64,000 bases of DNA, from the NCBI GenBank assembly GCA_001247695.2, contig LGRX02034759.1, positions 1-64,000 on the forward strand, in the 5' to 3' direction. The notes beneath the pieces are model-generated. The model saw only the letters and a list, made by a program, of their open reading frames with translations, was not told the DNA's origin and did no database searches. The DNA comes from Cymbomonas tetramitiformis (taxonomy: Eukaryota; Chlorophyta; Pyramimonadophyceae; Pyramimonadales; Pyramimonadaceae). Made by a program: the position numbers and the translations under genes. Within the stretch, counting starts at the first letter, position 1. The number at the start of each line of letters is the position of its first letter. This document shows, piece by piece, positions 1 to 43,201 of the stretch.

Positions 1-29
1 GCTACTACAGTGAGCGGGGACCCAGCAGC

Positions 30-1172
30 ATGGCGTTCACCTTGGAGTACCTCTCCTCAGATACGCGCAAGTTCGACTGCTGCAGCTGGGAGACCTGGAA
101 CAGGGTGGCGGTGATGCACCGAGAACCATTGTCTGCGTTCACATCCTCGGTGGGCCCGGCGTTGCTAACTGAGGCACGTCGGGCAGAGGTGCAGGAGCGT
201 CTTCGAAACGACTTCATGAGGTGCCTGGACCCAATCGAGGGAGGGGATACAGGAAGTGAGGAGGGAGACGGCAGCATCTCAGGATACTCTTCCGACCTCG
301 CGGCTGTGGAGGGTGTGAGCACTCACACGGGTCGCACCAGAACACCGTCGCCGCTGACAGAGGATGAAGACAGCGTGGAGGTCATCAGTGAAAGACTGGT
401 TGGGCTGTCTGCCAGATTGGCGCACGGGGAAGCCGAGCTCGCGGCAAACCACCTCACCATGGCGGCTCTCTCGGAATCGATACAGGCGCGTCAGGCGATC
501 ATCAGAGAATATGAAGAGCGACCTCGTACTGCCCGCGCAACTGCGAGGATTGGAGCGGGAATGAGCACGCTTGGGCCAGACTGCCCGGGGCTTGATGGTC
601 GTGGTGGCACGCAAGCCACGACCACGCCGCCACCCTACTCTGGCCGAGTTCTCGGCGGGATATCAACCATGGGCTTGGAGTGCAACATGGCACAGAGACC
701 TGAGCACCATTCAATCAACGACATTCTGGGATCCCCGGCACATTCCATCTGCACGCAGCAGACTGAAGCCGTGCCTCCAGCTGCACAGGAGCAGGACTTC
801 TCCGTTTCATACGTGCCATCGACCCCGAGCTCTACAGCACCCAGCAGCCCGGAGCGTTCCAGTGGCTTCGTTGCGCAGGTCGGCACTCGACCTTCAGGCC
901 ATCCTACGGCGCGCCCGCAGAGTCCAACTGAAAGTGCCGCACAGCAGCGTTCACCACGGGTTGGTCAGCGCAGGAGGAGATCTCCGAGCCCCAGGGAAGG
1001 CGCTCATCGTCAGGACACGGCTCGCGGTCGGCATGCCGGCATGGGCGCGTCGCGTGCTCCTCAGAGACGCCAAAGTTATGATGAGATCTGGGAGGAAAGG
1101 AGAAGGGAGAGCGCCCTGGGGCCTTTTCAAGGGGGCACCGGGCAGGCTGCAGCCCGGCACGCCCGTCACTGA
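30..1172 (+). CDS. Gag-like ORF1 of the Gypsy element
   Basis: An ATG-started frame of 380 residues lies directly upstream of pol. Its position, low complexity, and Ser/Pro/Arg-rich C-terminal half (roughly residues 230-380) are what one expects of a divergent Gag. No CX2CX4HX4C zinc knuckle is visible, and no aspartic protease motif (DTG or DSG) follows. It might start upstream of the window, but an ATG is present at 30. The pol frame is already open at 1085, so the last 88 bases of this ORF overlap it in the -1 frame; this would allow a frameshift fusion. Assignment as Gag rests on position rather than on a recognised domain. Confidence 0.6.
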
Positions 1173-1237
1173 GAAGCAGCCCCGGCGAAAAGCCGGGCAC
1201 GCAACCCGCCAATGATAGGCGGGCGAAGCGCACTCAG

Positions 1238-4200
1238 GTGTGCTTCCTGCTCGTGGGGGTGTTCGTGCGCTTGCGTTGGCCGCAGCTGCCTCATTTTGCA
1301 GTGATGGCAGTGTGGATGGCTATGGAGGTATTCAGGTTTCTTGGTGAGGTCGTCGCCTGCTGGGCATTCCACGCTGAGGCGCCCCGCAGAGCCATGGCAC
1401 GCGCGTTGTGGGCCGTGCGCGCAACGCCACTCCAGCCATGGGCACATCAACAGGCGCCTCTCCGAGTGCTGTTGGCACTGGCCAGGCACCTACTGCTGTT
1501 GACCAAGGGCGCTCTTGAGGTAGCTGGGCTCCATCACGCTCGACGTGGGCTGTGGTACGTGCCGTTGATACGGTTCTGCCTCGTCATGCTCGCCATGCAC
1601 TTCACACACATGGTCGGCACTCTGGGGTGCGTCTTGACGGTTGGCGCCCACATTGTCCACCATGGGTTGCCATGCTCCGGCTCGATTCAAGATGGTGGCA
1701 CATTCGCCGCGCTGGAGACTCAGGTGGGTCGCGCGCTGGCGGTCGCCCAGCGGATCTTGGCCGCCGGGCCGGCTACGCTGGCCGCTGTTCCGCGGCATAT
1801 GCAGAAGCCGCGCTTTGCCGCTCGACTGCAGCGCCTGCAGTTCACTGCCGCTTGCTACCGAGTGGCGCACTGTGTCTATGTGATATCAGTCTTGGCGCTG
1901 GTGGTCTACGTGTCTGCAGGAGGAGGCCTGGGCCGTATGCAAGGGGGGTGGAAGATGTTGACTTGCATACTGACCCTTCACCCTCCAGTTAAACCAGTGG
2001 GTACCGGCAGAATTTTACAACTTTTGCTGCTGCTAGCGGTGGCTGCTTGGGTGGCCGTCGTGGCCCCTGGGGAGCCTCAGGGCGTGCTGACGATGGACAC
2101 GTGCTCGAGCTCGCCGATCAGATCTACCAGGACCGCCTGGGAAGACCAGAGGTCTTCGCGCCAATGGGACACCGGATGGGAGGCTATGGTGGCAGAGCAG
2201 GACGAGGTGCTTCCGCACACGGTGCTGGACACGTTACAGCCAGGGGGCACAACCAGGGTCACCAAGGACGAGGCCGCGTGGCTGGACACCGAGCTCAATG
2301 CCACCTTTGGAGGACATCCCGAGTTCACCGAGGAGAATTGGGAGGAGATGCGCAACGTGGTAAGGAGGTGCAGCTACTGCTTCGCCAACAAGCCGCAGGA
2401 CATCAAAGGCTACCATGGGGGCGCGACACATGCGACCTTCGCCATCCCTTTCAAGGACGAGACTAAGGTAGCTTACCAACGACCGAGGAAGTACAGCCCG
2501 GGAGAGCAGGAGATCATCGACCTGCACTGCAAGGAACTGCTGGAATATGGCTTCATCGAGCCGGCTTCGCAGCACTGCAGACACGCCAGCAACGTGGTGG
2601 TTGCGGGGAAGAAGGATCACGACACTGGACAGTGGACCTCGACGAGATTCTGCGTCGACCTCCGATCTACGAATCGGTTGTCGCTGAAGGATAATACGTT
2701 ACCACACCGTCCAGAAGAGCTCTACCAGCGCGTGGCCAAGGCCAAGTTCAAGACTACCCTGGACGCGACCAAGGCGTTCCACCAGATTCCCATGACCACT
2801 GAGGAGGACAGGGACAAGACAGCGTTCTGGTGGGGCAACCAGCTTTATCGCTACACATCCATGCCGTTTGGAGCAGCCGGAGCAACCGCAGCCTTCATCA
2901 GGATCATGGACTACGAGCTACGTCACCTGCAACACTGCACGGTGGCGTACGTCGATGACGTGTGCATATACTCAGACACCGCTGAGCAGCACATCAAGGA
3001 TGTGGAAGCCGTGCTTCGCACTTTGGGGGATGCAGGGATACGCCTGCATTCGGGCAAGTCAACCTTCGGGTCAGCCACGGTGGACTTCTTGGGCTACCGC
3101 ATCGGCTATAACACCATTGGCGCGCAGGACATCAAGTGCAAGGCCATCCAAGAGCTGCCCAAGCCCGAGGACAAAACTGGAGTACGCTCCATCCTTGGAC
3201 TCATGAACTACTACAAAGGTCTGGTGGGGGAACCCATGGGACCCAACTACTCAGAGATGGCACGACCATTGAACGACCTGCTCAGAAAGGAAGTGTTGGA
3301 TGTCAAGGGAGCTTGGGGGAAGGATCAGGACCAGGCATTACAAGCATTGAAGGATGCCCTGTGTTCGGGGAGATGTTTGAAGCCCATTGATTACAGCAAG
3401 CCCATCTTCCTCTACACAGACTGGAGCAACCATGGCATTGGCGCAGTGCTGGGGCAGAAGGACGAGAATGGCGTAGAACACATCTGTGTGGTCATCAGCC
3501 GCTCGCTGTCGAAAACCGAGAGACAGTACGCGAGCTTCCAGGGTGAGATGCTGGCAGTGGTGTGGGCCATCCGCACATTACGACAGTACCTGCACGGGAT
3601 CCACTTCACGCTGATCACCGACCATTCGCCGCTCACAACACTCGTGGAGAAGGGTGACCTACAAGGTCAACACCTACGCTGGGCCATCAGCCTCCAGGAG
3701 TTTGAGTTCACGGTCCAGTACCGACCAGGTCCGAAGAATGAGAACGCGGATGTGCCATCCAGGTATCCACTGCCCAGCACCGCAGACGAGACTGGTGCCC
3801 GTTTGGACCGGGAAGGGGACCGAGCCAGGGAAGCGGGGCGTGCCGAGAGGCCAACGCGCTGCTTCACAGACGCCATTTGCTGGGAAGTGACCAGGGAGCC
3901 ACCACTTGGCCCCGAAGTAAGCCCAGAAGCTCAGGGGGCCAACTACTGCGAGAACATGGTCAGGGAGCAGCTGGGGACCAGTGCAGTCCATCGACTGTTT
4001 GATGTACACTACCAAGAAGAGCTGGAGTGTAACAAGGGGGGCATGTTTGACACTGACCACCCGGAAGTGGCCAGGTGCTCGGGCAGGTTGACTCGGGTCG
4101 CCTGGGATGCCCTCAGCCAGGTACGGCCGATCAGGGGTATGCATTCCGGAGGCTCACCAGCGATATACGGCGACGAGACCATGGAGGGTGGTAAGCTCAA

Positions 4201-7200
4201 AGTGCCGAAGAAGATCGACACGAGAGTGATTGACAAGAGCTTCTTCCGGGAAGCCAGAGAAGAGGGCGTGGTCTGCTATGAGCCGTGTGGGGGCCTGTGT
4301 GCTGGACTAGAGATGCTCTTGCGCTGCGGAGTTAAGGTTAACAAGTACCTCTACCAGGACATCTCGAAGTCCAGCCAGACGGTAGCCAGGGCCAGGTGCA
4401 TGGCGCTCAGCCGCCGTCATCCTGACTTGTTCCGTGCCGAGGCAGCCCACTTGGAGCAACTGCCCAGCAACATCGAAGACACCAGCCTCAGTGACCTTGT
4501 ACATGCAGGGGCATTGAGTGGAGAGCAGTGGGTCATGGTGTGTGGATATCCATGCCAGGACCTGTCACCAGCTGGTAAGCTGGCTGGTCTGGAGGGCAGG
4601 CACAGCAGCCTGTTCTACCAGGCAGTGCGAGTCCTCTCCACGCTGCAACAGCTGCAGCCTCAGAGACCGCCAGCATATGTGCTGGAAAACGTTTCTCCGC
4701 TGTCACACAAGGAGAACTCGAAGATCAGGAAGGAGGTGTTCCCCATCATCAACAGCGTGGGGGGCCAGCCGGTGTCCTTTGACGCGGCGCGCGCGGGATC
4801 ATACGCGCATCGTCTACGAGCATATTGGAGCAATCTGTTCCAGAATCAGCAGTTCAATCTGGTGATGGAGCGGGTGGACAGCCCACCAGACAGATACGTG
4901 CGCGATATTCTGCAGCGAGGCTGGAAGCCACGCAGGGTCGTCACAGGAGACAGGAAGCCTCACTACACCGCCAACGTTGTGGGGGAGCCTATGAGAGTAT
5001 TGCCAACCATCTTGGCGACACAAAACTCTCGTGCTTTTCGCGCACCTCGCGCAGGCACAGTGGTAAGGAAAGGAGATGATGATGAAGTGGGGGAGACCAG
5101 AGAGGTTAACCTGGACGAGAAGGCAGTTGCCATGGGGTACAGCGCAGGTGAGCTACGCGCGGCACATGGCATGAAAGACGAAGAATTGGCAGGAGTGCTT
5201 GGCCTTGCTATGGACCGAAGAGCAATGGAGCTATTGTATGCGATTGCCGAGGTCAGCACGACCAAACTGCCGAAGAGTGAGGAGAGTGAGGAGGAGGAAC
5301 ATGGCACGCTAGTTGCCATCCCCATCGCGAAAGCCACCAAGGTGGCTGCCACCTCCGAGGGCACGGCTGAGCCGGTGCGAGCCCAACTAGCAGAGTGGAT
5401 CACCAGTTCCAGCGGCTACACCCAGCCAGTCGCGCGACGCCTCAGCCATCAGGACTGGGAAGAACGACTGCAACGCATGTGCAGCCAAGGACAGAAAGGT
5501 ACACAGGGGCTAGGCACCGCCGACGCTGTTCCACGCCGCAGGCAGTGGAAGATGGCCTCCATGAAGCTCGCGGGCTACGAGGCACGTCACCGGCAGGCCT
5601 TTTCAGGACCTGGAGGCAAGCCAGCAGAGACGAGCTCAGCCCCAGAATGGGCACCAGTGACAAAGGAGAAAGAGATGAGGCTGCCTAAGCTGCCCGACAC
5701 TACGAGAATGGTTGCCATGCTAGCCAGCGTAACCAACCAGGAGTCATTCCGAGAAAGATACCCCGATATACACGAGGACGGGCTATGCCTCGCGTGGATC
5801 AAGTCAGGAGGAAGAGTGGAGGTGCCCAAGGAGGAATATCACAGGGTAAGGAAGAGGGCAGCGCGTCACCGTTGGGACGAGCTCATGGGCGAGCTATACA
5901 TGGTCACTGTCAGTGGTAAGGAGCTGCTGGTGCCCAAGCCCTGTGACAGGATTCAGTTGGTGCGTGAGTACCATGAGAGGACTGGCCATTGGGGCATCAG
6001 GCGGACATTGAACCTGTTGTGGCAGCGCCATTACTGGGCAGGCATCAAACAGGATGTGCAAGCAGTGGTCACTCAGTGCCAGACTTGCCAGAGGGTGAAG
6101 ACGCACTATGCACGGGAGGAGGCGAATCTCACGCCGCTGGAGATCAAGTCCTTCATGTATCGCTGGTCCCTGGATTTAGCGTGGCCCACGAAACGCGTCA
6201 CGAAGGCTGGGAACCAACGCGTCTTGGTCATGATTGAGCACTACACGCGATTCGTTGTGTGCGTTCCAATCCCCGACAAGGAGGCCGCCACCATCGCCAA
6301 CGCATTTCGCTATCATGTCCTATCCGTGTTTGGGGCGCCTGCAGAATGTTTGGTGGATGGGGGCACAGAGTTTGAAGGTGAGTTCTCTGCTCTATGCGAG
6401 CAGTGTCTCATTGACCGAAGAGTGACTTCACCGAGTTCCCCAGAGAGCAATGGCTTGACTGAACGGGTGGTACGCACCCTCAAGTTTTGCTTCAAGAAGA
6501 TGGCCCTCGACAAGGGCCTGGACTTCGAGTGGGATGAGATGCTCTGGTCACTCGTACTCAGCTACAACGCAGCTAGGCAGCAGTCCACTGGAGGGGCGCC
6601 ATTCACCTTGCTGTTCGCTCAGGAAGCCACGGTGCCACCGGATCTTCGTGCTCGACCCGAGTTGGACTTTGGGAAGCAGGAGGAGAAGACACTGGCTGAT
6701 GATCTGTTACAGCGAGCCGCCATCGTGAAGAGGCTCATGGTACATGCGGGGTGCAACCTGGAGATCGCTCAGCACCGCGACACTTTACGGTACGAGCACA
6801 GGAGGAGTGGCAGTTACGAGCCGAAGCCGCACCAGTTCAAGGCAGGCGATTTCGTGTATATACGACAACAACCGCGCTCTGGCATGGAGGTGGCCACCAA
6901 GTCAGCCATCCTGAAGATAGTCAAGGTGCAAAGAGATGGAGTGGTAGTGTTGGAGGACAGCACGAAGCTGCGGGAGAAGAGCACAGTGCAAAGTATTGCG
7001 CCATGTCACTTACAAGTGAAAGACCAGTACGACTGCAGTGCAGCCATTCCCAGCAAGCATCTCGCGTGTGAGGTGTGTATGCGGACAGATGGGGAGGCAG
7101 CCATGTTGCTGTGTGACACCTGTAACCGTGGTTATCACACGTGGTGTCTGAATCCAGCGCTGGATGGAGTACCTGAAGGGGATTGGCAATGTCCCAAGTG

Positions 7201-8281
7201 CTTAGGTGGGACCGTGGTGGCAGCCGCCGCCGAGGTGAGCGCGTCAATCGTCGACAAGATGGCGGCCATGGAGCTGCAGCTGAGAGAGAAGCTGGGATCA
7301 GATGTGGTATTGTTGCCTGCAGACGTAGGTCCGCATCGTGCAGTGAGGCCGGGACGTGAAGACCCATGGCAGGCGCTGACCTCGCGGCAGATGCTCAGAA
7401 AAGAAGGGAGCATGGGGGATCTTCCTGACAGAGTGGCCTGGGAAAACCAGGAGGAGCTCAGCAGAGTGATCACAGAAGTGATGCCAGGATTCTGGCATGA
7501 GGGCCATCGTACCATCTTGAGCAGGGAGTGTGCAGAGCAGCACACTCGCGCGAGAAGTCTCCGCAAGACGTCCACGGTGCAGGCCATGAGCCCTGAGGAA
7601 GTGCAGAAGAGAGGAGATGTGACGCAACTGAGCAGAGCTCAGGTGAAGATTGCCAGTCAACTGGATTGGGGCTTAGAGTTGGTGATGACAGTTCCTCAGG
7701 AGGTCAGACGTTTGGCGCACGAGGTGACTTGGGAGAAGATCACACAGGTATGGGATCCTTGGGCTGGCACAGGTGTCATTGGCAAGGTTATGTCGCTGGA
7801 ATGGCCTCACCTGAAGGTTATGAACAATGATTGGAACCCGCAGTTGAAGTGGCACGAAGCCCTTAATGCTTTACAACCGGGCAATTATCGAGCCTGGAAG
7901 GAGAAGTATGGGGTGTGTGACGCGATGGTGACCTCACCCTGGTTCGCAGTGCTGGATATTGCGTTGCCATTGGCAGTACTGGCCAGCCGAGTGGTGGCTT
8001 GTATTCATGTGCCATCGCACTACATGACAGATATGACAGAGAGCAGGGCACAATACTTTCGTAAGCTGTGTCACGCTGGACGTTTACATGTGATTGGGCA
8101 TTTGGAGCATGGACCCATTGGCAGAAGATGCATGTGGGTCATGGTGTTTCGCAACCCTTTGACAAGAGCCAGGATGTTGCGAGGAGGAGAAGCTTCTGGA
8201 GTGGGTATGTTTACCTTCAGCATGGGCAAGTTCGCAATGGATGGTGTTACAACAGAAGATGCTGAGCAAGCTCTTGTCTAA
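1238..8281 (+). CDS. pol: Gypsy polyprotein: RT, RNase H, C5-MTase, integrase, PHD finger, second MTase-like domain
   Basis: The frame has 2347 residues, given here from a GTG at 1238; there is no ATG near the start and the frame is open back to 1085, so a frameshift from ORF1 is likely. Residues 1-290 are rich in hydrophobic segments. RT has YVDD at 571-574. RNase H has TDWS from 727 and NADVPSR near 836. The DNMT3-like methyltransferase spans about 1005-1345. The integrase HHCC zinc site uses H1579, H1584, C1614 and C1617; its catalytic triad is D1646, D1707 and E1742. A C4HC3 PHD finger spans 1944-1988. The C-terminal Rossmann-type domain has DPWAGTG from D2173 and SPWF from S2233. The product would be cut into enzymes for reverse transcription and insertion. 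No protease motif was seen. Confidence 0.95.
4253..5272 (+). other. Cytosine-5 DNA methyltransferase domain inside pol
   Basis: The domain sits between RNase H and integrase. Motif I is [15 protein letters not shown] near residue 1012. Motif IV is [18 protein letters not shown] with the catalytic Cys at residue 1106. Motif VI is LENV with Glu 1150. Motif VIII is HRLRAYWSN with Arg 1192 and Arg 1194. A C-terminal motif IX/X-like stretch ends near residue 1340. All residues needed for C5 methylation are present. The RLRAYWSN segment and the overall spacing look most like DNMT3, although it has PCQ where animal DNMT3 has PCN. The expected role is methylation of cytosine in the element's cDNA or in host chromatin; which one is inference. 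Confidence 0.92.
7064..7201 (+). other. PHD finger in pol, after integrase
   Basis: A complete C4HC3 zinc pattern runs from Cys 1944 to Cys 1988, with the typical [15 protein letters not shown] core. PHD fingers usually read histone H3 tails. Next to integrase it could target insertion to marked chromatin, much as chromodomains do in other Gypsy elements. The targeting role is inference. Confidence 0.9.
7700..8281 (+). other. C-terminal SAM-dependent methyltransferase-like domain of pol
   Basis: DPWAGTG (from residue 2173) matches the SAM-binding motif I of adenine methyltransferases. NNDWN near residue 2196 fits the acidic residue after strand 2. SPWF at 2233-2236 sits where (D/N/S)PP(Y/F/W) is expected, with the second Pro replaced by Trp. 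It could be an N6-adenine methyltransferase relative, possibly altered or inactive. DIRS elements also carry an adenine-methyltransferase-like domain, so this may be a shared retroelement module. Confidence 0.65.
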
Positions 8282-8305
8282 TGTCTGTACTACCAGTGGC
8301 AGCTA

Positions 8306-8316
8306 CAGATGGGGGA
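8306..8316 (+). promoter_or_regulatory. Polypurine tract of the Gypsy element
   Basis: A G-rich purine run (GGGGGA) lies immediately before the TG of the 3' LTR, the expected place for the plus-strand primer. Confidence 0.7.
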
Positions 8317-8918
8317 TGTTGAGAAAAAGAGCTTGCACAAGTGGTGAGAAGAGATAAAGAGATATCAAAAATTTTGAGATTTTGTATAGCTACAGTAGCA
8401 AGATAACTGTGCAGTCATATAAGGAAGCATATGCAAAGTCGAGCTTGTGTTGTATAGGCACTGACAATAAGTAAGACTGTCTAGTAGTAGGGCTAGAGGG
8501 TTGTGCTTTGTGTGGACGCTTCGTGCATAAGTTCGCGACAGCTGACACAAACCACGGCTTATCGTGTACCTCAGCCGGGTTGTGACACTTGCTGTAGCAG
8601 TCTCTGTGACGAACGTATGACACGCGCAGTACGATACGCGCGAGGAGTTATGACAGTGACGAGATACGGATGGGTGTTACACTTGTTTGGAGATAGCGAG
8701 AATAAGTAGGGCGGCGTAGTGAGAGTGAGCAGACGCTCATTTTTGTTTTGCCTTCGTAACAGTGATTCCGAGAATAACCAGGACTCGCTTAAGACCGCGA
8801 AAACAGCAGTGTTATGAGATAATTAATAAGATACAGTATTCTTATGCTTGTAAAGATATACATTTGTGGACTTCTCCTTGTGCGACTGCGTCAGAACTGT
8901 AATTAACAGTCTTTTTCA
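8317..8918 (+). repeat. 3' LTR of the Gypsy element
   Basis: The repeat begins TGTTGAGAAAAAGAGC directly after the polypurine tract and ends in CA at 8917-8918. Its length is 602 bp. Its first 224 bp recur at 8920-9143 with no indels, which fixes the left boundary. Confidence 0.85.
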
Positions 8919-8919
8919 A

Positions 8920-9143
8920 TGTTGAGAAAAAGAGCTTGCACAAGTGGTGAGAAGAGATAGAGAAATATCAAAAATTTTGAGATTTTGTATAGTCACAGTA
9001 GCAAGATAACTGTGCAGTCATATAAGGAAACATATGCAAAGTCGAGCTTGTGTTGTATAGGCACTGACAATAAGTAAGACTGTCTAGTAGTAGGGCTAGA
9101 GGGTTGTGCTTGGTGTGGACGCTTCGTGCATAAGTTCGCGACA
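8920..9143 (+). repeat. Truncated second copy of the Gypsy LTR
   Basis: The first 224 bp of the LTR are repeated one base after the end of the first copy, with only scattered substitutions and a constant offset of 603. It stops abruptly at 9143, where DIRS-type sequence begins. It could be an older LTR into which the element inserted, or a tandem LTR broken by a later rearrangement. Confidence 0.85.
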
Positions 9144-10098
9144 TGGAACCAGAGCATACTCATGGGCCCGAAAAATCATACCAGAGGCCGTCTTAACCAC
9201 AGAGAAAGTCTTGGCCGCATTGGCCACATACTGCAGATACAAGGCCACCGTAACCGGGTCAGCCACCACCGCAGTCCGAGGGGGGTCCCTCTCAGCACAC
9301 CACCGCTGGTACCGCACAAAAGCCCGGGCATACCCATCAATGGTGCCCTGCTTCCTAGTCTCCAGCACCGCACCCCGGATGTCCCGCAGAAGCTGCCGCT
9401 CCAGAGGGTCCGTCTCCGAGAACCGCAAGCCATCCCAAAACTCCCCAGTGCCTATGGTGCCTGCAGAAAGGGCAGACCCCGCAAGAGCCCACGGCCCCAA
9501 GAACACCTCTCACAGCCACCAAGAGTGCAACGAACGAGACCCGAGGCCCGCGGGCTCCCTCTCATCAAAGGAAACCCGCACCACCAGGACCCGAAACCGA
9601 GGCAACCCCACCCCCCGCTCATTGGCCCTGCCAAGACCAGGGAGAAAGGTATCCGCAGACGGCTGGAGCTCAGTCCACTGGACCACACAATCAGCCAAAT
9701 GCACCCCATCCGGGCACAGCAGCACCCACCACGGCTGGAAGACCCACATAGGGGCCACCACCGTAGCAGCCGCCCTCTCCGCCTGTAGAAACAGGAGAAG
9801 CCTGCCAATCAACCGAAAAGGAGGGTTGCACCAATTCACGTGCTCCCTCCAATCCGACTGACTGAAAGTATCCACCCCAGAGGTGCCGGGGCAGTACCAT
9901 GCACTGTTGAAACGGGGCAACAGACAGTTCTTGTCTGTAGCAAACCGATCACAGGTGTGCCAGTACCCCCCAGCGATCCAAGGATCCAGGAACTGAAAGA
10001 TGGCCGGATTCAGCATCCAGTCATCATAGTCCTGGATCTTGGACAGACCGTCCGACCGAACCTCAAACTCCCTGGGAACCCACAAGGACGACGGTAGG
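9144..10098 (-). pseudogene. DIRS-type retrotransposon fragment: RNase H end, adenine MTase domain, tyrosine recombinase start
   Basis: Read on the minus strand, the fragment starts with the end of an RNase H domain (WVPREFEVRSDGLSK). It continues with the DIRS methyltransferase region (DRFATDKN, RFNSAW, and the catalytic NPPF near 9820-9830). A frame break follows at 9506-9510. It then has the N-terminal SAM-like core-binding domain of a tyrosine recombinase. This order is specific to DIRS/PAT-type elements. Reverse transcriptase and the catalytic recombinase half are missing, so it is dead. It is bounded by a truncated Gypsy LTR on one side and by the LTR of TRG-4 on the other. The family call is firm; the clade within DIRS is not. 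Confidence 0.85.
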
Positions 10099-10106
10099 CT
10101 ATTTAA

Positions 10107-10349
10107 TGCGAGAAAGACAGATACTACTGTCCGGCTAAGCTCGCTGAAGATCAAACAGATAATCGCATAACTAGTGTCTGGCCGAGGCTTTATGCTCTCG
10201 GAAACCCAGACAGTGAAACAAGACTGTACTACTGTATTGTACTACTGTACAGTACAGTGCTAGGATGTCACTGACACGATACGGAAGCAGGGTCAGGCTA
10301 GGGGCTAGTCAGAGCCCATAATAACTAAGCCTAAACCCGAAGTCCAGCA
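10107..10349 (-). repeat. 3' LTR of TRG-4
   Basis: This 243-bp copy is nearly identical to 18376-18617. On the minus strand it begins TGCTGGACTTCGGG and ends CTCGCA. Confidence 0.9.
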
Positions 10350-18375: not shown

Positions 18376-18617
18376 TGCGAGAAAGACAGATCCGCTGTCC
18401 GGCTAAGCTCGCTGAGAATCAAACTCATCATCACATAAACAGTGTCTGGCCGAGGCTTTATGCTCTCGGAAACCCAGACAGTGAAACAAGACTGTACTAC
18501 TGTACTGTACTACTGTACAATACAGTGCTAGGATGTCACGGACACGATACGGAAGCAGGGTCAGGCTAGGGGCTAGTCAGAGCCCATAATAACTAAGCCT
18601 AAACCCGAAGTCCAGCA
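18376..18617 (-). repeat. 5' LTR of TRG-4
   Basis: This 242-bp partner of 10107-10349 is followed on the minus strand by GGTTATGGC, the family's primer-site-like sequence. Confidence 0.9.
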
Positions 18618-38564: not shown

Positions 38565-41500
38565 ATGAGCAGTCTGGGTAGTCTTGGCCAGGTGAAGCTA
38601 ATAAGGTATCTCCAGTTAGCTGTGACGAAAAAGTTGCGCCCTCCTTTAGCATGCAAAGGGTTGGAGGCAACAGCACGTAAAGCATCATCGCTTACATATT
38701 GCGGCATCTCAGGAAAGGCTGTTCCAAGGAATTACTCAGGTAAAAAGAACGGTGGACTAAAACCTCCTAAGATTGAGACTCTCGACGTCGGTGACGTATG
38801 CTCGGACGGTACGACAGGAGACTGCATATTCAATATTCCCTTTCCCCCCATGTTTTCCGTTTATAGTGTTACGTGTTTACGTCGGAGACCAATGAATCTG
38901 CCGGGGTCACAACCAGGTCGAATTATTGTTATTGGGGACGTTCACGGCTGTTGCGGCGAGTTGTTGGACCTGCTGGAAAAATGCGATAGAAGGACACAGG
39001 TTGCCCTTTATACGATGTTTTCGATATAGCCGTTTGATGCCTGTTGTCAATCCGGAATATATGTACAGCTCTCAACCTGAAATGAAAGCCGCGCAATGTC
39101 TCATAACCTTCCACCTTTATTTTAACCAGGATCTCGTGATATTCGTTGGAGACCTCGTGAATAAGGGTCCCGATTCCGCTCGCGTCTTGGCAGAGGTGAC
39201 TCCAAATTGCTCGATTTTTGTCAATATTAAGTAGCTGAATGAGATTCGCAAGGATGATAGCTCTTTCATTCTTGCGTATTTGTACCTCCATACGGAGGCG
39301 AACATGAATATTGGCATTGCCTCTCAGAAATCGAAGTCTCCAGTGACTCTTCCCCGTACTCCGGCCGCTGAGCCGAAAGAAGAACGCTGTTCTACTCATC
39401 CACTCCAAACGCGGATGAAACACGTTGTCGCGAGTCGTGCAGCGTCCTGAGGCACTCCATGGGTGCGGGAACAGGCGCGTCGGATCGGCGCCCTGGCTGT
39501 CCTTGGTAACCACGATGCCGCGGCGCTTCAGGCCTACGAGAAGTGGCTCGCAAACCCCAGCATAGCTCTCGCCCCGAAGTATCAGTGGGTACAACGCTTC
39601 TCAGAAAGTCCCTCTCTCAATCTCCCGAGATCCGCGCGCCTCCTGACGTTATTTTCGACTCCTTCGTCTCAAAGAGAAAAATGCGTTTCCTGGATCCCAG
39701 GGTAACTTTGAGCGTATGAACAGCTATTAATAGAAATGTCCCTACGTTATCAATCCTGGATAAGTTCGAAATTGAGGTGTTACAGATGGGGAGTTTGGAC
39801 ATCAACAGGTGGAGGAGCTCTGTCCCGAAGATGTTGCCTGGCTACGCGCATGTCCGTTGAGCCTTGCAATCCCGTTCCACGACGCACTAGTTGTGCATGC
39901 TGGACTGGTGCCAGGTGTTGGCCCTGGCTGCGTGAAGCTTATTTCTTTCCCGGAATCCTTTTTAGTCGCCCGCGTAGTCCTAAGTTGACTTAAACTCTTG
40001 TCCATAACTGGCGTGTGCAACAAAACTAGGGCCCAGGAGTGAGTGTCGGGCTTCACGCCTTATGCGCACGCCCGTTTGATCGCTTTGTGTTAATCCAACT
40101 ATTTTCATCAGATCTTTGCAGTGTGTCGCTCACGGGTGGTGTCCCTAGATTAGTGCTCTCAGTGTGTTCATCAGGATCGGCAGTTTTTACCTTGCCACTG
40201 CTCTGCAACGCACCGAGCCTCGCGGAGCTGTAGTAACTGTTTGGAATGGTAAGCTCCCAGATCAGAAAGGGAACGTAAGGAGTCGCGAGCTCCCAGGAAC
40301 AAGGACTCAGGATCACCCTGGGGTACAGGTTTGCCTTTGAAGAAGCAATCCAGGAAAAATATGTACAAGATACGTGACGTGGTTCCTGACGGGTAAGTGG
40401 AGTGCCCCACACACGACATCCGGCCAGAATGTGCTCGTAGTGTTTCAGTGGCCACCTTGCCGCAATCTAGCACGAGAACAGGCGACCTGTTGCCTTTTAG
40501 ATATTCACTTGGGAAGTGTTGTGTCCGTCACGTTGGAGCTGTCGTGCCTTGTGCGGCCATACTTGCAGAGACACTCGAACGGGGTTTTCCTACCTCTACA
40601 GAACGAAATCAGAGCATTTAGCAGAAATGCACATCTGAGTTGAGCTAATGACATGAGCCTTACCAAAGTCGGAGGACTTCATCATCGATCGGCCTACTTG
40701 GACAGTCCCCAGCAGCGATGGGGAACTGATCTCAATCTTCGACACCCTCTGAGCACCACCTCCCCTCGAACTAAAACATGTTGTGACATATGTGGGCCTC
40801 ACCACGTCGATCCATGGGCCAGCTCACCAGGGCTATGGTAGAAACCCATTTGAGTGACCCTGCCAGGGTGTCGCTGGCCAGGAGCGGATGGGCAGCCGTG
40901 AAGAAAGGCGGCCTCGGCCCTCCGGGACGGGCTTTTCCGTGGGCATCCCGATGGCAGGGCCCTCAACACATTATCTTCGGTATCTTCCCTCAAGGACCCC
41001 TTGTGATGCTCCCCCCTTCGTCGTGCACAATGCTCACACAGGCGCCATCGGTGCCCATCTGGAGCCCCTTCGTCGTGCACGATGCTCACACAGGCGCCAT
41101 CGGTGCCCATCTGGAGCCCCTTCGTCGTGCGCAATGCTCGCACAGGCGACATCGGTGCCCATCTGGAGCCCCTTCGTCGTGCACAATGCTCACACAGGCG
41201 CCATCGGTGCCCATCTGGAGCCCCTTCGTCGCGCACGATGCTCACACAGGCGCCATCGGTGCCCATCTGGAGCCCCTTCGTCGTGCACTATGCTCGCACA
41301 GGCGCCATCGGTGCCCATCTGGAGCCCCTTCGTCGTGCACAATGCTCGCACAGGCGACATCGGTGCCCATCTGCAGCCCCTTCGTCGTGCACGATGCTCA
41401 CACAGGCGCCATCGGTGCCCATCTGGAGCCCCTTCGTCGCGCACGATGCTCACACAGGCGCCATCGGTGCCCATCTGGAGCCCCTTCGTCGTGCACGATG

Positions 41501-43201
41501 CTCACACAGGCGCCATCGGTGCCCATCTGGAGCCCCTTCGTCGTGCGCAATGCTCGCACAGGCGACATCGGTGCCCATCTGGAGCCCCTTCGTCGTGCAC
41601 AATGCTCACACAGGCGCCATCGGTGCCCATCTGGAGCCCCTTCGTCGTGCACAATGCTCGCACAGGCGCCATCGGTGCCCATCTGGAGCCCCTTCGTCGT
41701 GCACGATGCTCACACAGGCGCCATCGGTGCCATCTGGAAGCCCCTTCGTCGTGCACGATGCTCACACAGGCGCCATCGGTGCCCATCTGGAAACCCCTTC
41801 GTCGTGCACGATGCTCACACAGCGCCATCGGTGCCCATCTGGAGCCCCTTCGTCGTGCACAATGCTCGCTGGCGCCATCGGTGCCCATCCTGGAGCACCC
41901 CTTCGTCGTGCACAATGCTACTTCCAGGCGCCATCGGTGCCCATCTGGAGCCTAGTCGTGCGCGTACCGCTGGCGCCATCGGTGCCCATCTGGAGCCCCT
42001 TCGTCGTGCACAATGCTCGCACAGGCGCCATCGGTGCCCATCTGGAGCCCCTTCGTCGTGCACAATGCTCGCACAGGCGCCATCGGTGCCCATCTGGAGC
42101 CCCTTCGTCGTGCACAATGCTCACACAGGCGCCATCGGTGCCCATCTGGAGCCCCGCACCGTATAGTAGAACGTCCATAGAGGCGCTACCCTTCGGAGGA
42201 TGTTGCTGGCAGGGTGTGGGCAATGGATGTGGCAGGGCATGACGCTGGCAGGGTATGGGCAATGGATATGGCAGGGCATGACGCTGGCGGGTATGGGCAA
42301 TGGATGTGGCAGGGCATGACGCTGGCGGATATGGGCATGGATGCGGCAGGGCATGACGTCTGCGGGGTGTGGGCAATGGATGTGGCAGGGCATGACGCTG
42401 GCGGGTGCGGGCAATGGATGTGGCAGGGCATGACGCTGGCAGGATGTGGGCAATGGATGTGGCAGGGCATGACGCTGGCGGGATGGTGGCAATGGATGTG
42501 GCAGGGCATGACGCTGGCAGGGTGTGGGCAATGGCTGCGGCAGGGCATGACGCTGGCGGGTGTGGGCAATGGATGTGACAGGGCATGACGCTGGCGGGTG
42601 TGGGCAATGGATGTGAGGTGATGGCAATGGATGCGGCAGGGCGTGATGCTGGCGGGGTGTGGGCAATGGATGTGGCAGGGCATGGCGCTGGCGGGTGTGG
42701 GCAATGGATGTGGCAGGGCATGACGCTGGCGGGGTGTGGGCAATGGATGTGGCAGGGCATGACGCTGACAGGGGTGTGGGCAATGGATGCGGCAGGGCAT
42801 GACGCGCGCCGGCTTTTGCAACGTTATACATATGCAACAGGTACGGAACTCACTGTTGCAAGGATGCCTTTAGCGCACATTTGTACCTGTTCATGCATTA
42901 CGTTGTCATTGTACCCGGTATGTGGATACAGAGGCAAACCATTGCCCATGCAGGCGTGTCTTTTCGCTGTTGGCTTCGCCACGATGTCATGCAGCCATGC
43001 ATCGCAACTGGACACGACACGCACAATGACATCTCTTTCTGATGTGGTACAGGCCTGGACACTGCATGTGTGTATGGTGGTGAGCTGACTGCCTGCATTT
43101 TACCCTCAGTAAATGATCTCCGGACCTCCGGCATGAGGAGTGATCCAGCCATGTGGCAGTTTGTGGCAGTCAAGGTGAGGGTCTCCAAGGGCGTTCGGTG
43201 A
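38565..43201 (+). CDS. ApaH-like metallophosphoesterase (ALPH), eight exons
   Basis: Exons read 38565-38999, 39130-39195, 39475-39588, 39809-39914, 40329-40392, 40882-40979, 42796-42840 and 43053-43201. All introns are GT-AG, and phases match throughout for 358 residues. Metal-binding motifs appear in order: GDVHG (D125, H127), GDLVNKG (D153), GNHD (N179, H180), HAGLVPG (H235) and GHDARRLLQ (H296), with LDTACVYGGELTAC after them. This is the PPP/ApaH fold. Bacterial ApaH cleaves diadenosine tetraphosphate, and the trypanosome relative ALPH1 removes mRNA caps; the substrate here is unknown. Residues 1-109 precede the domain and could be a targeting peptide; ATG 38892 is an alternative start. 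The exon 3 acceptor and the final exon end are the least certain points. Confidence 0.88.
41014..42162 (+). repeat. Minisatellite 1 in ALPH intron 6: 52-bp unit, about 22 copies
   Basis: The unit begins CCCCTTCGTCGTGCACAATG, contains GGCGCCATCGGTGCCCATCT, and repeats every 52 bases. Variation is mostly single-base, with a few short deletions near 41730-41960. The period is not a multiple of three and the units lack stops, which creates long false reading frames on both strands. Confidence 0.97.
42204..42795 (+). repeat. Minisatellite 2 in ALPH intron 6: 38-39-bp unit, about 15 copies
   Basis: Each unit contains CAATGGATGTGGCAG followed by GGCATGACGC. The last unit runs into exon 7, whose acceptor and first ten bases are the same sequence. 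The array therefore repeats the splice acceptor. Confidence 0.95.

What the first reader, a model, noticed from the sequence alone, without database searches (positions are those of the whole stretch)
4253..8281. Gypsy polyprotein with two different methyltransferase domains and a PHD finger
A single uninterrupted pol frame contains a DNMT3-like C5 methyltransferase with all catalytic motifs between RNase H and integrase. After integrase it has a PHD finger and a second SAM-binding domain of adenine-methyltransferase type. Retrotransposons with captured cytosine methyltransferases have been reported in Symbiodinium and Klebsormidium, as far as I recall. The combination with a PHD reader and a second methyltransferase in one polyprotein would amount to a self-contained write-and-read chromatin module on a mobile element. 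The combined role is inference.
Basis: partly seen in the sequence, partly recalled or inferred. Interest (0 to 1): 0.92.

Follow-up and report, generated by a model that had tools for sequence, protein, structure and literature searches.

The report
Retrotransposon with two methyltransferases and PHD
A mobile element present in many near-identical copies in the genome of a marine green alga, which database matches name as Cymbomonas tetramitiformis, encodes in one long protein its copying and pasting enzymes, a DNA cytosine methyltransferase domain, a PHD finger that would read histones, and a second domain predicted to be a methyltransferase acting on adenine or the cytosine amino group, so it likely marks its own DNA and chooses its landing sites by chromatin.

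Summary
Window 1085-8281 is one open frame of 2398 codons in the order RT, RNase H, C5-methyltransferase, integrase, PHD, second methyltransferase-fold domain. It is no one-off: 20 of 20 scored genome copies span the frame at 98-100% identity, 19 without a stop, and a second subfamily keeps the order. Database matches name the host as the green alga Cymbomonas tetramitiformis. The element has split direct repeats (A-ORFs-B-A-B), TGTC...GACA ends and 4-bp target duplications in 5 of 5 copies with both junctions read. Of 144 polyproteins from algae and metagenomes, 114 carry RT, DNMT, integrase and PHD in order; 78 of 82 with enough C-terminus have the second domain, but only 29 of 79 keep its motifs by a simple pattern. 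The closest known element, KnitGypsy-Dnmt3, shares Gypsy pol, Dnmt3 and DIRS-like repeats; what I read of it names no PHD or second methyltransferase. Roles of the added domains are inferred. Verdict: a real, widespread, apparently undescribed variant of a known kind.

The parts
1..1172 (+). 3' end of the gag-protease frame (starts upstream of the window; frame read from base 3, stop TGA at 1170-1172)
   Evidence: Translation from base 3 to the stop, stop position by script. In the copy on C1224 the same frame opens at L009:3477 and holds a CCHC-like knuckle and a DTGA protease motif; Pfam sees the protease only below cut-off.
1085..8281 (+). pol frame, 2398 codons, in the -1 frame relative to gag, overlap 1085-1172
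   Evidence: No classical X XXY YYZ slippery heptamer in the overlap, so how pol is reached is not known.
1202..2104 (+). hydrophobic, probably membrane-spanning N-terminal part of pol (residues 40-340)
   Evidence: Read by eye; homologous stretch found in 14 of 38 polyproteins, 13 of them named Cymbomonas and one an unnamed gene model (P0046).
2696..3103 (+). reverse transcriptase (RVT_1 match)
   Evidence: Pfam 2.2e-21; YVDD motif at residue 622.
3314..3703 (+). RNase H
   Evidence: Pfam RT_RNaseH 7.2e-32 and RT_RNaseH_2 2.7e-29.
4247..5254 (+). C5-cytosine methyltransferase, DNMT3-like; catalytic Cys is residue 1157 (4553-4555)
   Evidence: Pfam 1.4e-10; PDB profile best DNMT3A 4.8e-12; motifs.
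5945..6664 (+). integrase: H2C2 zinc-binding domain and DDE core (D1697, D1758, E1793)
   Evidence: Pfam; catalytic residues and spacing.
7067..7201 (+). PHD finger, C4HC3 complete
   Evidence: Pfam 1.3e-10; pattern; nearest PDB PHDs KMT2C/MLL3, CHD4, KMT2D, KDM5-type.
7502..8254 (+). second domain, predicted class I methyltransferase fold (motif I DPWAGTG residues 2224-2230, motif IV TSPWF 2283-2287)
   Evidence: Model m2b95a89c5e14 and fold searches; homologues.
8305..8316 (+). polypurine-tract candidate (acagatggggga) directly before repeat B1
   Evidence: Same stretch in the 7 other copies read (L002-L008) and in L052 of the second subfamily, with one change in L051.
8317..8540 (+). repeat B, first copy
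   Evidence: Direct repeat with 8920-9143 at 97%; ends ...GCGACA.
8543..8919 (+). repeat A, 3' copy; its 5' partner A1 would lie upstream of the window
   Evidence: Matches the 5' end of 6 of 6 other copies whose 5' side was fetched, at 94-98%.
8920..9143 (+). repeat B, second copy; 3' end of the element

Best explanation
The window holds the 3' three-fifths of a Ty3/Gypsy-type retrotransposon, by database matches of a green alga, whose Pol protein carries a DNMT3-like cytosine methyltransferase domain, a PHD finger and a second domain predicted to fold as a methyltransferase, which likely let the integration complex methylate the element's own DNA and settle in histone-marked chromatin. Shown: the domain order, the catalytic residues, the split repeats, the 4-bp target duplications, the many near-identical open copies, and the wide recurrence of the order in other algae and metagenomes. 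Inferred: (1) pol is made by a -1 shift from the gag-protease frame; (2) reverse transcription yields cDNA whose terminal repeat is the B-A unit, since a polypurine stretch sits directly before B1; (3) the DDE integrase joins the TGTC/GACA ends of the A and B repeats, which meet in a palindrome GACAGCTGTC at the B-A junction, so integration likely proceeds from a circular or joined cDNA; (4) the PHD, placed after the integrase where chromodomains sit in chromoviruses, tethers the complex to histone H3 tails; (5) the DNMT methylates CpGs of the new copy, which would keep it quiet and tolerated, and the second domain adds an adenine N6 or cytosine N4 mark, or methylates the element's RNA.
Against: No activity, expression or methylation data were available here. 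CpG depletion could be the host's own methylation; the test had no DNMT-free control family, third codon positions alone give p 0.054, and A/T sites show singleton transitions as often as CpG sites (55 of 2978). The Pro of PCQ is replaced by Glu, Ser, Asp or Ala in 96 of 138 rows, so catalysis in the lineage may be altered. The second domain's motifs pass a simple pattern in only 29 of 79 rows, and its tree distances do not track the other domains beyond permutation (r 0.17-0.24). Some supported splits conflict between domains, for example 7 of 32 RT splits with the DNMT tree, so there may have been exchange. The circle model predicts a mirror form A-B-A-ORFs-B about as often as A-ORFs-B-A-B; none was seen in the 6 copies whose 5' end was read, at least three of which have the full form, so it is incomplete. 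Near-identical copies were ranked by protein score, which lowers within-family pN/pS; between subfamilies synonymous sites are near saturation.
Confidence: 0.5

Rival explanations
1. The DNMT domain is kept for a structural or nucleic-acid-binding job in the Pol complex (for example base flipping or cDNA binding) and methylation is weak or absent.
For: The Pro of PCQ is replaced in 96 of 138 rows and the second domain is often degenerate; the isolated KnitGypsy-Dnmt3 domain gave no methylation in yeast, which its authors call inconclusive.
Against: Catalytic Cys, Glu-Asn and the Arg pair are nearly invariant, and the window's copy has the full PCQ and ENV. SymbioDIRS-Dnmt3 domains did methylate CpG in yeast.
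Confidence: 0.2
2. The methyltransferases act on host chromatin or on competing elements and viruses rather than on the element itself, as a selfish or defensive modifier.
For: Cymbomonas carries many endogenous viral elements (PMC10675990), and a defence role for transposon methylases has been proposed in print (PMC6338049).
Against: Fusion inside Pol places the activity in the integration complex; element CpG depletion points at the element, weakly.
Confidence: 0.15
3. The C-terminal domain is an RNA methyltransferase (METTL5- or KsgA-like) that marks the element's transcript.
Against: DNA enzymes are tied with it (PacII 14.1, Vibrio methyltransferase 14.0) or little lower (HsdM 13.7, M.TaqI 13.6), so the list does not separate them.
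Confidence: 0.15
4. The extra domains are chance captures carried along without function in recently amplified copies.
For: Copies are near-identical, so recent amplification alone could keep frames open.
Against: The same order recurs in relatives with DNMT identities of 35-62% across algae and metagenomes, and dN/dS of about 0.1 between subfamilies matches that of integrase.
Confidence: 0.03

Closest known systems
KnitGypsy-Dnmt3 of Klebsormidium nitens (de Mendoza et al. 2018, PMC5890265; parts 1-3 of 7 read, plus passages)
   Same: Dnmt3-type domain inside the Pol frame of a Gypsy element, conserved key residues, purifying selection, repeats arranged as in DIRS elements.
   Different: The paper's main text has no occurrence of PHD, and what I read names no second methyltransferase in it (supplements not seen). 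Its host is a streptophyte, here a chlorophyte.
SymbioDIRS-Dnmt3 and SymbioLINE-Dnmt of Symbiodinium (same paper)
   Same: Retrotransposons carrying a C5 methyltransferase; SymbioDIRS has DNMT and RT in one frame and split repeats.
   Different: SymbioDIRS has a tyrosine recombinase in a separate frame, SymbioLINE is a LINE; no PHD or second methyltransferase mentioned in the parts read.
DIRS-type elements with Dam-like adenine methyltransferases (mentioned in PMC5890265 and PMC6338049)
   Same: A retrotransposon-borne adenine-type methyltransferase and split direct repeats.
   Different: Here a DDE integrase with 4-bp duplications, and no Dam-family match for the second domain.
Chromoviruses and Tudor-bearing Gypsy elements (PMC12477816, passages)
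   Same: A histone-reader domain fused behind the integrase.
Algal DNA transposons with a ParB plus N4/N6 methyltransferase protein (PMC12477816, passages)
   Same: An algal mobile element carrying an amino-methyltransferase.
   Different: A separate protein of DNA transposons, not part of a Pol polyprotein.
Cymbomonas genome descriptions (PMC5741210, PMC10675990; passages)
   Same: The 2015 paper notes a cytosine DNA methyltransferase among very high-coverage scaffolds and links such domains with repeats.
   Different: The passages do not describe the element; the 2023 main text has no occurrence of 'methyltransferase'.

Membership tests
Ty3/Gypsy LTR retrotransposon | Pol order RT-RNase H-integrase with DDE integrase and H2C2 zinc domain | tested here: met
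Ty3/Gypsy LTR retrotransposon | 4-6 bp target duplication, TG...CA ends | tested here: met
   TGTC...GACA and 4-bp duplications in 5 of 5 copies with both junctions.
Ty3/Gypsy LTR retrotransposon | Two identical flanking LTRs | tested here: not met
   A1-ORFs-B1-A2-B2 split repeats instead; I therefore call it Gypsy-type.
Ty3/Gypsy LTR retrotransposon | RT places inside Ty3/Gypsy in a tree | not tested
   No reference RT set was aligned.
DIRS-type (tyrosine recombinase) retrotransposon | Split direct repeats | tested here: met
DIRS-type (tyrosine recombinase) retrotransposon | Tyrosine recombinase, no target duplication | tested here: not met
   No PF00589 in the pol or gag frames; 4-bp duplications. 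Antisense frames inside the element were not scanned.
DNMT3 family C5 methyltransferase | Motifs I, IV (PCQ), VI (ENV), VIII, IX, X | tested here: met
   assignment of motif names is recalled.
DNMT3 family C5 methyltransferase | Closest to DNMT3 among known C5 methyltransferases | tested here: met
DNMT3 family C5 methyltransferase | De novo CpG methylation activity | not testable with these tools
   Needs an assay.
PHD finger | C4-H-C3 zinc ligands | tested here: met
PHD finger | Binds histone H3 tail | not testable with these tools
   Needs a peptide assay.
N6-adenine / N4-cytosine amino-methyltransferase | Class I SAM fold with motif I after strand 1 and motif IV after strand 4 | tested here: met
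   Predicted model and motif positions.
N6-adenine / N4-cytosine amino-methyltransferase | (D/N/S)PP(Y/F/W) motif IV | tested here: inconclusive
   TSPWF in the window and the other Cymbomonas rows that cover it; SPPF in several relatives such as P0068, P0083, P0106, P0147.
N6-adenine / N4-cytosine amino-methyltransferase | Sequence match to a known family | tested here: inconclusive
   None for the window copy in PDB or NCBIfam; among 19 aligned members one matches MethyltransfD12 at 0.002 and one N6_N4_Mtase at 0.0053.

The most novel reading that the evidence does not exclude
An old, still spreading lineage of green-algal retrotransposons travels with a complete chromatin kit in its Pol protein: two chemically different DNA methyltransferases that write marks on each new copy and a PHD finger that reads histones to steer it, and it integrates through a DDE integrase from circular cDNA cut at a palindromic repeat junction.
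Probability: 0.25. Interest if true: 0.88.

Novelty: new variant of a known kind. Interest (0 to 1): 0.68.

Why it matters
Transposons are usually victims of DNA methylation; an element lineage that carries its own writers and a reader lets one ask directly whether self-methylation helps an element persist. The breadth found here (237 proteins at E 0.001 or better in one search, 120 listed, with Haematococcus lacustris and Monoraphidium neglectum among the named) suggests that the Klebsormidium case is not isolated, and that one ancient capture in green algae against repeated capture can now be tested. The DDE integrase with split repeats also bears on the old question whether circular cDNA can be an integration substrate.

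Tried and rejected
A first AlphaFold job on an alignment of Cymbomonas-rich fragments gave a poor model (mean pLDDT 48.2); only the second was used. An early guess at a dinoflagellate host was dropped when homologues named Cymbomonas; the spliced-leader pattern is absent from the window. Rfam found nothing in the window at gathering thresholds or in the 5' leader of another copy up to E 1. PADLOC, PHROGs and the locus scans of viral and genome contigs were not used. No Klebsormidium name appears in the 120 of 237 listed proteins, so kinship with KnitGypsy-Dnmt3 stays open. Both protein searches that built the family set used the DNMT region as query, so DNMT presence there (144 of 144) is by construction, and elements without DNMT were not looked for. 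A methylation-signature test was weak and partly against. The viral fold library gave only general methyltransferase matches. From the list no absence is claimed.

A first motif script failed on coordinates and was rerun with a wider domain; my early domain bounds 1080-1490 cut off motif I.

Full report
What is there. The window begins at the first base of contig C24634 of the host genome, an 851.7-Mb assembly. Bases 1085-8281 are one open frame of 2398 codons. Pfam finds reverse transcriptase, RNase H, a C5 DNA methyltransferase, the integrase zinc domain, the integrase core (just under its cut-off) and a PHD finger, in that order. Homologues of up to 94% identity to the C-terminal part and 98% to the DNMT are named Cymbomonas tetramitiformis, a marine prasinophyte green alga (abstract of PMC5741210).

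The element. Comparing copies shows that it ends at window base 9143 and begins about 6.4 kb upstream of the contig start. In the copy on C1224 it runs from 130857 to 146387, about 15.5 kb. Its repeats are split: a repeat A of about 385 bp at the 5' end, then gag-protease and pol, then B (about 225 bp), A again and B again. Outer ends are TGTC...GACA, and five of five copies with both junctions readable have a 4-bp target duplication (GCAA, ATTG, GCTT, ACCC, TGTG; read). Two of those five (C23501, C25345), and one copy read only at its 3' side (L007, with the same 3' flank as C23501), lack the inner A-B pair. A polypurine stretch stands directly before the first B in 8 of 8 copies read; it is identical in L052 and has one change in L051 of the second subfamily, where a repeated B was found in two of three loci (L051, L052; not in L053). 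B meets A in the palindrome GACAGCTGTC in 7 of 7 other copies where that junction was read, with one base changed in the window's copy. This arrangement is that of DIRS elements, but the integrase is of the DDE kind and no tyrosine recombinase domain was found in either sense frame.

The cytosine methyltransferase. Residues 1055-1390 carry PCQ, ENV, the HRLRAYW motif VIII that resembles DNMT3, and motifs IX and X. A profile of nine diverse members finds DNMT3A first (4.8e-12), then DNMT3B, DRM (2.8e-8), HhaI (7.7e-6) and DNMT2 (0.38); no DNMT1 chain appears among the 54 matches. I call it DNMT3-like on this ranking; no tree was made.

Not a one-off. In the host, 20 of 20 scored copies span the frame at 98-100% identity and 19 have no stop. 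The second domain was found in 126 of 126 scored matches, 125 without a stop, out of 3492 first-look candidates, so the counts are lower bounds. A second subfamily has 25 scored copies with frames of 2231-2525 codons, one with a stop. Between subfamilies, dN/dS is 0.11 for the DNMT (one comparison; the other was saturated), 0.08-0.09 for PHD and 0.10 for the second domain, like integrase (0.10) and above RT (0.04-0.07). Three of four linkers have pN 0.32-0.39, the fourth 0.18-0.20, against 0.09-0.24 for the domains. Synonymous sites are near saturation, so these are rough.

Breadth. Two DNMT-region searches gave 143 polyproteins besides the window's own; one search listed 120 of 237. Named hosts include Cymbomonas, Haematococcus lacustris and Monoraphidium neglectum; a gene model coded Chrzof1 is, from memory, Chromochloris zofingiensis; most are metagenomic and unnamed. 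Of 144, 72 show RT-DNMT-integrase-PHD-second domain and 42 the same without the last; 78 of the 82 with at least 200 residues after the PHD block have the second domain. In 58 complete members, trees of RT, DNMT, integrase and the block of integrase tail plus PHD agree by distance (r 0.60-0.77), with some conflicting supported splits (7 of 32 RT splits against the DNMT tree); the second domain's distances do not agree beyond permutation (r 0.17-0.24), although half of the supported RT splits (16 of 32) are present in its tree. Results against a simple write-and-read story: 96 of 138 rows, Cymbomonas included, lack the Pro of PCQ, Glu being commonest (80); and only 29 of 79 second-domain rows keep both motifs by a simple pattern, four rows being incomplete there and a few others failing by one residue.

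Mechanism. The position of the PHD behind the integrase suggests tethering to chromatin, as recalled for chromodomains of chromoviruses. Its nearest solved relatives are PHDs of KMT2C, CHD4, KMT2D and KDM5-type proteins, several of which are known, from memory, to bind H3 tails. The DNMT, held in the same protein, would methylate the cDNA or new copy. The element's CpG depletion (0.74 against 0.95, at different base compositions) and a twofold excess of CpG over other C/G transitions among eight copies (p 0.038; third positions p 0.054) agree with methylation of copies but cannot tell the element's enzyme from the host's, and A/T sites show transitions just as often. The polypurine stretch before B implies that reverse transcription sees B-A as its terminal repeat, whereas integration uses the A start and B end; a circular or joined cDNA cut at the B-A palindrome would produce the observed copies. 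The absence of the mirror form in the six copies whose 5' end was read is a point against the simplest version.

Prior work. De Mendoza et al. 2018 (PMC5890265; three of seven parts and passages read) describe KnitGypsy-Dnmt3 with DIRS-like repeats in Klebsormidium and Dnmt-bearing DIRS and LINE elements in Symbiodinium. Morozov et al. 2019 (PMC6338049; passages) state that methylase-bearing Gypsy and DIRS elements occur in groups including green algae, without details in the passages. The Ectocarpus transposon survey (PMC12477816; [quoted passage not shown] A survey of microalgal DNMTs (PMC9998398; passages) found no DNMT3 in green algae of its transcriptome set. The Cymbomonas papers (passages) note a cytosine methyltransferase in high-coverage scaffolds but no such element. 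Eight literature searches showed no paper that I could see to describe the DNMT-PHD-second methyltransferase combination; only open-licence papers were searched, hits were judged from listings and the passages named, and supplements were not seen.

Verdict. A real, abundant and widespread retrotransposon variant; the domain identities are well supported, the base specificity of the second domain is open, and the roles are inferred.

Noticed in passing
Relatives P0054-P0182: The Pro of the catalytic PCQ motif is replaced, mostly by Glu (80 of 138 rows), while the Cys stays; a C5 methyltransferase clade with ECQ or SCE motifs.
   Followed up: partly
window 1202-2104: Pol opens with about 300 residues rich in hydrophobic, probably membrane-spanning stretches between protease and RT; some metagenomic relatives have hydrophobic stretches in the same place, by eye.
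   Followed up: partly
L009:2930-2962, 3148-3180, 3428-3460: Three copies of a short hairpin-like repeat (ccagggacgga..tccgtactggta) in the 5' leader of another copy; no Rfam match.
   Followed up: partly
window 8526-8548: B and A repeats meet in a palindrome (GACAGCTGTC in other copies) that looks like a joined-ends junction, with a DDE integrase rather than a tyrosine recombinase.
   Followed up: partly
L027-L033: Seven C5 methyltransferase frames of 383-401 residues without interruption, on seven contigs, with a bacterial or viral look by eye; possibly of endogenous viral origin.
   Followed up: no
P0102, P0121, P0134, P0141, P0152: Some relatives carry a precomputed G-patch domain (PF01585).
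   Followed up: no
P0026, P0027, P0070, P0071: Between PHD and the second methyltransferase-fold domain, or near the end, a Tudor- or chromo-barrel-like stretch by eye; not tested.
   Followed up: no
P0173: A family member is filed in NCBI as a metagenome-assembled bacterium (Minisyncoccia); probably algal DNA in a bacterial bin.
   Followed up: no
window 41013-42155: Long tandem array with a period of about 52 bp, copies 90-98% identical, overlapping several long open frames.
   Followed up: no
window 9096-10241 (minus): Antisense open frames directly downstream of the element, with a 243-bp stretch repeated at 18376; no Pfam match, looks by eye like a tyrosine-recombinase element.
   Followed up: partly
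window 1085-1172: gag and pol overlap by 88 bp in different frames with no classical slippery heptamer.
   Followed up: partly
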